Positions 9,492 through 15,662 of a stretch of DNA of 64,000 nucleotides are shown here, one piece after another. A program made the position numbers and the translations under genes. Each line of letters opens with the position of its first letter. The stretch's first letter is position 1. The stretch spans positions 62,001 through 126,000 of the forward strand of contig NZ_WACR01000001.1 in assembly GCF_008806325.1 (NCBI RefSeq), in the 5' to 3' direction. The notes beneath the pieces are model-generated. The model saw only the letters and a list, made by a program, of their open reading frames with translations, was not told the origin of the DNA and did no database searches. Source of the DNA: Salibacter halophilus. GTDB taxonomy: Bacteria; Bacteroidota; Bacteroidia; Flavobacteriales_G; Salibacteraceae.

Positions 9492-9526
9492 TCGTGCTTG
9501 TGCGGTAGTTGAAACACTCTATTTTT

Positions 9527-9549
9527 GGTCAGATCCAGTGGATCTGACC
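9527..9549. repeat. Inverted pair of GGTCAGATCC words
   Basis: GGTCAGATCC (9527-9536) and its reverse complement GGATCTGACC (9540-9549) are separated by AGT, giving a perfect 10-bp stem with a 3-base loop. A T-run precedes and AT-rich DNA follows. Both arms are members of the window-wide 10-mer family. Uptake-sequence pairs in Neisseria and Haemophilus commonly double as terminators in this way. Confidence 0.8.
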
Positions 9550-9572
9550 ATTAAAGTTGACATTCATTTTTC

Positions 9573-13793: not shown

Positions 13794-14198
13794 ATGGAAA
13801 GAAATAAATACGACACCCTTTACAGTGACGATAACGTAGTAAAGTATAACGACTGGTCAGGGAGGCATTTTAAATCTGAGAATGGAAAACTTATAGTTGG
13901 AATCTTCTTTACTCATAGAGAATACCCGGAAAATTACTCAGGATTTCCTCAACGAAGAATAGTATTAACTGTTTTTTCATTTGAAAACTTGAATATAGAT
14001 ATACCACTTTATCAAGCCAAAAATAACTTCCTTATACTGACAAATAAGGACTTTCCAGACTTAGCCTTTACTTACCGGGTAAAAATTGATGAAGATGCAA
14101 AATCAGCAACTATAATAGTTGAAGATTATCCTGAACTAGAAAAATCACTAATGACAGAAGATGAAGAAAATGGCTTAACTGTAGATTACGACAACTAA
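13794..14198 (+). CDS. Hypothetical protein
   Basis: 134 residues, acidic, with no signal peptide or membrane helix. The order of strands (IVGIFFTHREYPENY, RRIVLTVFSF, NFLILTNKDF) suggests a small beta-rich fold. I do not recognise the family. It stands alone after the betaine operon, with its start supported by coding-like composition and an AT-rich upstream region. The 44-bp palindrome follows about 160 bp downstream. Confidence 0.5.
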   Translation: MERNKYDTLYSDDNVVKYNDWSGRHFKSENGKLIVGIFFTHREYPENYSGFPQRRIVLTVFSFENLNIDIPLYQAKNNFLILTNKDFPDLAFTYRVKIDEDAKSATIIVEDYPELEKSLMTEDEENGLTVDYDN

Positions 14199-14357
14199 TA
14201 TCGGGTACAAATAGCTCCTTTTATGAAAAAGAAGACATAAAAAGTTAGCGTCCCCGCTACCACACAATTTCATAACATCCCCTTGAGATTTCCATCGAAA
14301 TTTAATGATCAAGAACTACCAAACTTTGAAAATAAAAGGAATTAATAAATCCTGAAT

Positions 14358-14401
14358 TTCAATATATAGGTATGCGATGCATCGCATACCTATATATTGA
14401 A
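14358..14401. repeat. Perfect 44-bp palindrome
   Basis: Twenty-two base pairs pair on each side of the centre between 14379 and 14380 without mismatch or spacer; the centre reads GCGATGCATCGC. It lies in a 284-bp spacer between convergent genes. Long spacerless palindromes are unstable in bacteria, so retention suggests recent origin or a role such as a bidirectional terminator or protein-binding site. No T-tract flanks it. Confidence 0.9.
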
Positions 14402-14481: not shown

Positions 14482-14808
14482 TTACCCCACCTCCTTCTCC
14501 AATCTTTCCTTCACGCCCGTTTCATCATCCGCGATGTCGCGATCTTCGATGAAGATCACTTTTTTATTTTGGGCTTTTAGGTCTGCCTGCATTTTCGCTT
14601 CAAGGTGATAGCTATCAGTGTGATCGTGGCTGTCTTCAATGAGGTAGATCGCTACCTGTTGATCAGGAAAATAGAAATTGAGGAGGTACTCGCCCATTTG
14701 AACGAACTCCTCAACCGGTTCTGGAGGGAGCAACTCGCGCAGCTTCACGTGAGCCGCGCTCTGGTGTTGCATCCAGTAATCGTCTTCTAAATAAAAGCTG
14801 TCCATCAT
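14482..14808 (-). CDS. Small protein with DUF559/VSR-like nuclease resemblance
   Basis: 108 residues. The central block EYLLNFYFPDQQVAIYLIED followed by a helix and KVIFIEDRDI resembles the core of the DUF559/very-short-patch-repair nuclease fold, where the pattern is a strand, an acidic residue and a strand. The expected IELDG motif is altered to IYLIED, so activity is doubtful. Its ATG overlaps the stop of the MBL-fold gene by 4 bp, so the two are coupled. The family call is tentative. Confidence 0.45.
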   Translation of the reverse strand: MMDSFYLEDDYWMQHQSAAHVKLRELLPPEPVEEFVQMGEYLLNFYFPDQQVAIYLIEDSHDHTDSYHLEAKMQADLKAQNKKVIFIEDRDIADDETGVKERLEKEVG

Positions 14809-15662
14809 TCACCAAACACTTCGCGGAAAGCAAAAACCTCATCCAGTCGAACACCTTTCTCAGTGTGTTTGACCGTACACAATTCGTTTTGTGAATCGTG
14901 CTCGAGGAACAGCACGTAATTCTCATCGGCTGCTTTTTTCAAAAACTTATCCTTCTCATCGAGCGTGAGTAGCGGACGCGTATCATAGCCCATGACAAAA
15001 GGCAACGGAATGTGCCCTACTGATGGCAACAGATCGGCCATAAAAACGAGCTTTTTTCCTTTGTAATTGATGTGCGGAATCATCTGCTTATCGGTGTGGC
15101 CGTTTACGTACAACACGTCAAATCCCAGCGGAGTATCCGTTAACATATCACCATTCGGTACATCAAGGTGATTGAGCTGTCCGCTCTCTTCAATCGGTAA
15201 AATATTTTCTTTCAGGAACGATGCTTTTTCTCTCTGATTTGGTTCAGTGGCCCATTTCCAGTGATTCTCGTTACTCCAGTATTTCGCATTCTTGAAAGTG
15301 GGTAGCAACTTTTCGTCCTTTGTTCGCTCAATCGCACCACCACAGTGATCAAAGTGAAGGTGCGTCAAAAACACATCCGTAATATCATCGCGGTGATAAC
15401 CTTGCTCCTTAAGCGATTCGTCCAGTGTGGGTCCGTGCGGATGGTAATGACCAAAGAACTTTTCGCTCTGCTTGTCACCCAGTCCGGTGTCGAGCAAAAT
15501 CAGCCTGTCACCATCCTCAATAATCATGGAACGCATCGCCCACGTACACAAATTCTTTTCATCAGCCGGATTTGTGCGGCTCCACAGTTGTTTTGGCACA
15601 ACGCCAAACATCGCTCCGCCATCCAGCTTAAATTTTCCTGCTAAAAGTGGTGTAATTTTCAT
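14805..15662 (-). CDS. MBL-fold metallohydrolase
   Basis: 285 residues. The zinc motif THLHFDHCGG (HxHxDH) and the later GHTDKQMIPHI block place it in the metallo-beta-lactamase fold. LLDTGLGDK precedes the zinc motif, as in the lactonase-like subgroup (AHL lactonases and relatives). There is no signal peptide, so it should be cytoplasmic. The substrate is not predictable. It is transcribed with the small gene at 14482. Confidence 0.85.
   Translation of the reverse strand: MKITPLLAGKFKLDGGAMFGVVPKQLWSRTNPADEKNLCTWAMRSMIIEDGDRLILLDTGLGDKQSEKFFGHYHPHGPTLDESLKEQGYHRDDITDVFLTHLHFDHCGGAIERTKDEKLLPTFKNAKYWSNENHWKWATEPNQREKASFLKENILPIEESGQLNHLDVPNGDMLTDTPLGFDVLYVNGHTDKQMIPHINYKGKKLVFMADLLPSVGHIPLPFVMGYDTRPLLTLDEKDKFLKKAADENYVLFLEHDSQNELCTVKHTEKGVRLDEVFAFREVFGE

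What the first reader, a model, noticed from the sequence alone, without database searches (positions are those of the whole stretch)
14358..14401. Perfect, spacerless 44-bp palindrome
All 22 positions pair around a GATG|CATC centre. Spacerless palindromes of this size are prone to deletion or cleavage by SbcCD. It stands between the plus-strand hypothetical gene and a minus-strand operon, where it could stop transcription from both sides, but it lacks U-tracts.
Basis: seen in the sequence. Interest (0 to 1): 0.5.

Follow-up and report, generated by a model that had tools for sequence, protein, structure and literature searches.

The report
Copy of a small mobile palindrome
The perfect 44-letter mirror sequence is real and is one of five scattered copies of a small repeat of a kind thought to be spread by a transposase-like enzyme, so it is probably a worn relic of mobile DNA rather than an assembly error or a classic transcription stop signal.

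Summary
The 44-bp spacerless palindrome (14358-14401) is real, the longest in the window and far beyond chance. It is not unique: the genome holds four relatives, three perfect (contigs C1, C4, C5) and one half decayed (C3); differences among the four perfect copies are mirrored in both arms over the inner 16 pairs. Its 28-bp core belongs to a family GTAGGnnnGCGATGCATCGCnnnCCTAC, found in 33 loci of 13 assemblies of Bacteroidota, Chloroflexi and Armatimonadetes, with the anatomy published as 'double-foot' REP. Elsewhere the repeat flanks a REP-associated transposase (RAYT) gene (Fluviicola) or lies in frame inside RAYT genes (Pollutibacter, a Chitinophagales MAG). The window genome has two RAYT-like genes, one in the same clade. 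The window copy has lost the GTAG motif (ATAG), so it is probably a relic. Unexpected: in Pollutibacter the core sits inside 8-nt arms that differ between loci yet are reverse-complementary (137 of 144 pairs), giving 22-bp arms, as here; in the window genome itself that signal is weaker. How those arms arise is open. A terminator role is secondary at best; artefact and SbcCD readings are not supported.

The parts
14358..14401 (.). 44-bp perfect spacerless palindrome (copy P1 of the repeat family)
14366..14393 (.). 28-bp core ATAGGTATGCGATG|CATCGCATACCTAT, aligned with the double-foot core GTAG...CTAC of the other copies; both feet here read ATAG/CTAT
14358..14365 (.). left 8-nt arm outside the core (TTCAATAT)
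14394..14401 (.). right 8-nt arm outside the core, reverse complement of the left (ATATTGAA)
13794..14198 (+). 134-aa reading frame, no Pfam match, ends 159 bp before the palindrome
14482..14808 (-). 108-aa reading frame, no Pfam match, its stop lies 80 bp from the palindrome
14805..15662 (-). metallo-beta-lactamase-fold protein gene (PF00753), upstream in the minus-strand run
14246..14259 (-). terminator-like hairpin with T-run for the minus strand, beyond the palindrome; consensus match only, 3 such sites found in 3 kb against 2.3 in shuffles

Best explanation
The palindrome is a diverged, probably immobile copy of a dispersed repeat family of the double-foot REP kind. Such repeats are thought to move as single-stranded DNA hairpins that a REP-associated tyrosine transposase (RAYT/TnpAREP, a HuH single-strand nuclease) recognises by the GTAG foot, nicks and rejoins elsewhere. 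Shown here: the copies, their mirrored variation, the cross-phylum family, its placement beside and inside RAYT genes elsewhere, and two RAYT-like genes in this genome, one in the same clade. Inferred: that RAYT activity placed this copy here, and that the lost GTAG makes it immobile. In place it sits, like the other copies, between genes near 3' ends, where transcripts would fold into a stable hairpin that may protect 3' ends or weakly stop transcription.
For: Five copies in the genome, 0 in 34 other genomes of the family. P1-P4 differ at 1 to 5 of the inner 16 pairs, always on both arms. Same core in 33 loci of 13 assemblies, 1-38 copies per genome at up to 2 mismatches against 0 for the reversed control in 13 of 13. 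Flanks a RAYT on both sides in Fluviicola; lies in frame between the HuH and tyrosine motifs of RAYT frames of Pollutibacter and G317, as published for subclass 2.4 (PMC6006769). Own RAYT C2 joins the RAYTs of repeat-bearing genomes with support 100/97, 45.7% identical to the Fluviicola one, and is itself flanked by repeats of the same geometry with another centre. All five copies lie between reading frames, 7 to 159 bp after the nearest stop codon (P5 measured from its core).
Against: The window copy lacks GTAG on both arms. Neither RAYT-like gene of this genome is flanked by repeats with the same centre, and both score below the model's curated cut-off (62 and 58 of 80 bits). Two genomes with 8 and 17 copies have no RAYT match. 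Only 3 of 60 RAYT-like loci carry this centre and 1 of 29 Y1 loci, the same Fluviicola gene. Copy number here is low. No empty site was found.
Confidence: 0.82

Rival explanations
1. A bidirectional transcription terminator or 3' mRNA-protecting hairpin kept by selection, whatever its origin (not exclusive with the REP origin).
For: Convergent genes; strong RNA hairpin; all five copies near 3' ends, P2 and P4 7 bp after a stop codon.
Against: No U-tract, whereas several hairpins in a 400-kb sample of the same genome end in A/T tracts; a separate terminator-like site lies 98 bp further for the minus strand. The repeat is absent from 34 other family genomes, and G001, which keeps the lactamase-fold gene and the 108-aa neighbour, lacks it there.
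Confidence: 0.25
2. A palindrome made perfect in place by template-switch copying, with no mobile origin.
For: The mechanism is known to create and mend perfect hairpins (PMC8794818, abstract); mirrored differences fit it.
Against: It cannot account for the same core at five places here and in 13 unrelated assemblies.
Confidence: 0.05
3. A binding or recombination site for a dimeric host protein.
For: Perfect two-fold symmetry; few copies.
Against: Placement behind genes rather than in front of them in the copies seen; stem letters vary freely as long as they pair.
Confidence: 0.04
4. Assembly or chimera artefact.
For: Fold-back chimeras give spacerless palindromes; no reads were available.
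Against: Four perfect copies with different letters inside contigs of 298-460 kb and the same core in unrelated assemblies.
Confidence: 0.01

Closest known systems
Double-foot REPs of TnpAREP subclass 2.4 (RAYT group 4), PMC6006769 (section 13 and passages read)
   Same: GT[AG]G at one end and its complement at the other; RAYT genes flanked by the repeat or carrying it in frame between HuH and tyrosine motifs; abundant in Cyanobacteria and Bacteroidetes.
   Different: The window copy has ATAG. In Pollutibacter and, more weakly, in the window genome the palindrome runs about 8 nt beyond the foot with locus-specific letters; I did not see this described in the parts read.
GTAG-tagged REPs, families GTAG-1 to -24, PMC3733652 (abstract, sections 5 and 16, passages)
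   Same: Dispersed palindromes between convergent and unidirectional genes, complementary stem changes, GTAG tag.
   Different: There the GTAG is an unpaired tag at one end and most stems are 6-9 bp; here it is paired at both ends and the palindrome has no loop.
REPINs, PMC3116915 (passages)
   Same: Inverted REP pair forming one hairpin, compensatory changes, thought to be moved in trans by a RAYT.
   Different: REPINs have a spacer between the two REPs; here there is none. PMC6006769 notes that a double-foot REP could come from central deletion of such a dimer.
Intrinsic transcription terminator
   Same: Stable hairpin near gene 3' ends.
   Different: No U-tract; dispersed homologous copies.

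Membership tests
Double-foot GTAG REP | Palindromic repeat in several dispersed copies in one genome | tested here: met
   Five copies; low number for a REP family
Double-foot GTAG REP | GT[AG]G foot with C[TC]AC at the other end, family level | tested here: met
   P2, P3, P4 and 33 loci elsewhere
Double-foot GTAG REP | GT[AG]G foot in the window copy itself | tested here: not met
   ATAG/CTAT at 14366-14369 and 14390-14393. So the window copy is filed only as a diverged copy of the family, not as a canonical REP
Double-foot GTAG REP | Cognate RAYT gene flanked by the repeat or carrying it | tested here: met
   In other genomes: Fluviicola L092, Pollutibacter L183, G317 L184; 3 of 60 RAYT-like loci
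Double-foot GTAG REP | Cognate RAYT flanked by the same repeat in the window genome | tested here: not met
   C2 and C5 RAYT-like genes have repeats with other centres
TnpAREP subclass 2.4 (for the window genome's RAYTs) | Motifs NH[IFV]H, WQ, YIxNNP (table in PMC6006769) | tested here: inconclusive
   own_C5 NHFH/WQ/YIRNNP fits; own_C2 DHVH/WQ/YIIDNP does not fit exactly
Double-foot GTAG REP | Recognition and cleavage by TnpAREP | not testable with these tools
   needs a biochemical assay
Intrinsic terminator | Hairpin followed by a U-tract | tested here: not met
Rfam RNA families | Score at or above a gathering threshold | tested here: not met
   10 matches at E up to 1, none near its threshold, best 32.1 of 100 bits, mostly microRNA models

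The most novel reading that the evidence does not exclude
The moving unit is the 28-bp double-foot core, and each insertion makes or requires an 8-nt reverse-complementary pair of locus-specific arms around it: either an inverted target duplication made by fold-back copying when a RAYT inserts the hairpin, or strict insertion at the centre of 16-bp palindromes. In Pollutibacter soli 137 of 144 flank pairs at positions 1-8 match, while positions 9-16 do not exceed shuffles (47 of 144 against 42.9), although arm letters differ between loci. The 22-bp arms of the window copy (14 + 8) would be the product of such an event. I recall no transposon that leaves an inverted target duplication (memory, no search settles it).
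Probability: 0.3. Interest if true: 0.7.

Novelty: new variant of a known kind. Interest (0 to 1): 0.45.

Why it matters
It turns an apparent oddity into a copy of a mobile-repeat family and shows this REP type in several phyla, with one RAYT clade in Bacteroidota genomes that carry it. If the mirrored 8-nt arms are made at insertion, they are a footprint of how RAYTs insert REPs, whose spread is called poorly understood in the abstract of PMC8266576 (passages read). A cleavage and strand-transfer assay and a few empty sites would test it.

Tried and rejected
Exact 22-mer arm in genome contigs: no match, since the window copy is diverged; a degenerate pattern then found 33 loci. The Y1 transposase on C9 as mobiliser: it is IS200-like (84.9 bits), has a different palindrome beside it and gave no tblastn match better than E 0.81 in the loci L037-L073. 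The text string GCGATGCATCGC in papers: 3 hits, by title unrelated, listing only. Rfam: nothing. The first RAYT tree had minus-strand loci in the wrong frame and is superseded; there 12 of 56 proteins without the HuH pattern were left out, and only loci returned for the best matches could enter. Empty-site search with the lactamase-fold protein: gene in 24 of 25 genomes, loci of 11 others read; G001 keeps the 108-aa neighbour (44% identity) without a palindrome but with other genes beyond, L187 has a 38-residue hit, the other 9 none. So no clean empty site.

Results against the mirrored-arm reading: G318 13 of 56 pairs (shuffles 16.4), Armatimonadetes MAG 30 of 64 (28.6), Fluviicola SJ411 19 of 32 (91 of 2000 shuffles reach it), window genome 30 of 40 (26 of 2000) with partly shared flanks; G317 55 of 72 (2 of 5000), but after collapsing near-identical flanks to 4 copies 377 of 5000 shuffles reach it; none of 3 IMG/VR loci has the arms, two of them being one place in opposite orientation. 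A paper on small cyanobacterial repeats (Elhai 2008) is not held, so a precedent there could not be checked.

Full report
Observation. The palindrome is at the stated coordinates with all 22 pairs and no spacer. Composition predicts 1e-8 such palindromes in the window, and a 400-kb sample of the same genome has none with a spacerless arm above 15 bp. It is not a chance object.

Further copies. The window is C1:62001-126000 of a 3.12-Mb genome in 32 contigs. A search with the palindrome and its flanks, a 32-mer of the P3 type and a core pattern together give five copies: P1 (window), P2 (C5:111728-111777, 50 bp perfect), P3 (C1:40915-40952, 38 bp perfect), P4 (C4:101875-101916, 42 bp perfect) and P5 (C3, perfect only over 213954-213973, one half decayed) (coordinates). 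Over the inner 16 pairs P1 to P4 differ from one another at 1 to 5 pairs, each time on both arms; comparisons with P5 show 4 unmirrored changes each. Of 35 genomes of the family only the window genome has the core pattern at up to 2 mismatches; of 295 genomes of the class only the window genome has the 32-mer at up to 3 mismatches.

Wider family. GTAGGnnnGCGATGCATCGCnnnCCTAC matches 33 loci in 13 assemblies of genome contigs, titled Chitinophagales, Chitinophagaceae, Pollutibacter soli, Sphingobacteriales, Saprospiraceae, Fluviicola, Flavobacteriales, Chloroflexi, Anaerolineales, Thermomicrobiales and Armatimonadetes, plus one IMG/VR contig. The 13 genomes hold 1 to 38 copies each at up to 2 mismatches; the reversed control has none in any of them. 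Stem letters outside the fixed core vary mostly in complementary fashion. The core is therefore GTAG, stem, GCGATG|CATCGC, stem, CTAC, 28 bp, with the foot paired at both ends.

Link to RAYTs. Of 29 Y1-type loci (28 from these genomes and the window genome's own on C9) one, in Fluviicola, has the repeat on both sides of the gene; its protein matches NCBI's REP-associated transposase model at 56.9 bits, below the cut-off of 80. Of 60 RAYT-like loci three carry this centre: the same Fluviicola gene, a Pollutibacter gene and a G317 gene. In G317 and in another gene copy of Pollutibacter the repeat lies in an open frame between the HuH and the tyrosine motif; one Pollutibacter copy is broken by stops. 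In-frame REPs at this place and double-foot REPs are reported for TnpAREP subclass 2.4 (PMC6006769, section 13 and passages). The window genome has two RAYT-like genes, C2:92185 and C5:66244 (62 and 58 bits, below cut-off). In a tree of 44 proteins own_C2 joins the Fluviicola C63, second Fluviicola, G319, Pollutibacter and G317 RAYTs (100/97); each of these genomes carries the repeat. RAYT-like proteins of other genomes of the family that entered the tree lie elsewhere, L140 beside own_C5 being the nearest. Own_C2 is flanked by repeats of the same geometry but another centre. Against a strict link, G316 and G320 carry 8 and 17 copies without a RAYT match; as MAGs they may lack pieces.

Loss of the foot. 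P1 reads ATAG where P2 to P4 read GTAG. In the E. coli system no change of GTAG was tolerated, in Stenotrophomonas a change of the first base lowered cleavage, and a Marinomonas enzyme was more flexible (PMC8266576, passages). That P1 is immobile is thus an inference.

Position. All five copies lie between reading frames: P1 159 and 80 bp from two convergent frames, P2 7 bp after an sbcC-like gene and convergent with a peptidase gene, P3 21 bp after a glycosyltransferase gene (next gene not settled), P4 7 bp after a DUF6992 gene with a HipA-like gene further on in the same direction, P5 150 bp (from its core) after a methylpurine-DNA glycosylase gene and convergent with a transpeptidase gene. 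This is the placement reported for GTAG REPs (PMC3733652, passages). It fits survival of insertions where they do least harm as well as a role at 3' ends.

An unexpected feature. Outside the foot the palindrome goes on, with letters that differ between loci. Among 34 matches of the family pattern 9 have at least 4 further pairs. In Pollutibacter soli 18 copies read from the fetched stretches have 137 of 144 pairs at positions 1-8 beyond the foot, against 82.2 (sd 5.7) when right flanks are shuffled among copies, and 0 of 5000 shuffles reach it; positions 9-16 show 47 of 144 against 42.9. After collapsing similar flanks to 8 copies it is 61 of 64 against 31.2, again 0 of 5000. In G317 it is 55 of 72 (2 of 5000) but not significant after collapse to 4; in the window genome 30 of 40 (26 of 2000 shuffles reach it); G318 and the Armatimonadetes MAG show none, nor do the IMG/VR loci. 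The typical Pollutibacter unit is thus about 28 + 2x8 = 44 bp with 22-bp arms, the size of the window palindrome. In some loci one side goes on as a heptamer array whose unit matches the arm (L229, L232). Three origins remain: insertion at the centre of existing 16-bp palindromes (about 19 per Mb expected by composition, so this needs strict targeting), an inverted duplication made at insertion, or later template-switch mending (mechanism: PMC8794818, abstract). The sharp limit near 8 nt speaks, in my view, for the first two. I saw no description of this in the papers found, of which I read parts of four (PMC6006769, PMC3733652, PMC3116915, PMC8266576).

Verdict. A diverged copy of a double-foot REP-type family.

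Noticed in passing
L023 (G000:C9:95615-98956) 1406-1447: An IS200-like transposase gene has a 42-bp perfect spacerless palindrome of unrelated sequence (GCCCCTCATAGCCCGCGGTTTAAACCGCGGGCTATGAGGGGC) just upstream and a shorter one downstream.
   Followed up: partly
L179 (G000:C5:64500-68500) 2261-2355; L140 1644; L152 1351 and 1943: The second RAYT-like gene of the window genome has hairpins of a GGGCGAAT..ATTCGCCC type; RAYT loci L140 and L152, in the same part of the tree, carry the same type, as if repeat type and enzyme travel together.
   Followed up: partly
L144 (G013:C179) 1740-1767: A 28-bp double-foot palindrome with another centre (GTAGAGACAGGGCATGCCCTGTCTCTAC) lies near a RAYT fragment in another genome of the same family.
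   Followed up: no
L224, L229, L230, L232 (Pollutibacter soli): Heptamer arrays such as (GAACAAC)n abut the repeats on one side only, the unit equalling or nearly equalling the arm.
   Followed up: no
L010 (G000:C5:110500-113000) 1221-1229: A 50-bp perfect palindrome begins 7 bp after the stop codon of an SbcC-like gene, the very enzyme family that cuts hairpins.
   Followed up: no
window 9526-9550: 25-bp palindrome with a 1-nt centre, TGGTCAGATCCAGTGGATCTGACCA, not of this family.
   Followed up: no
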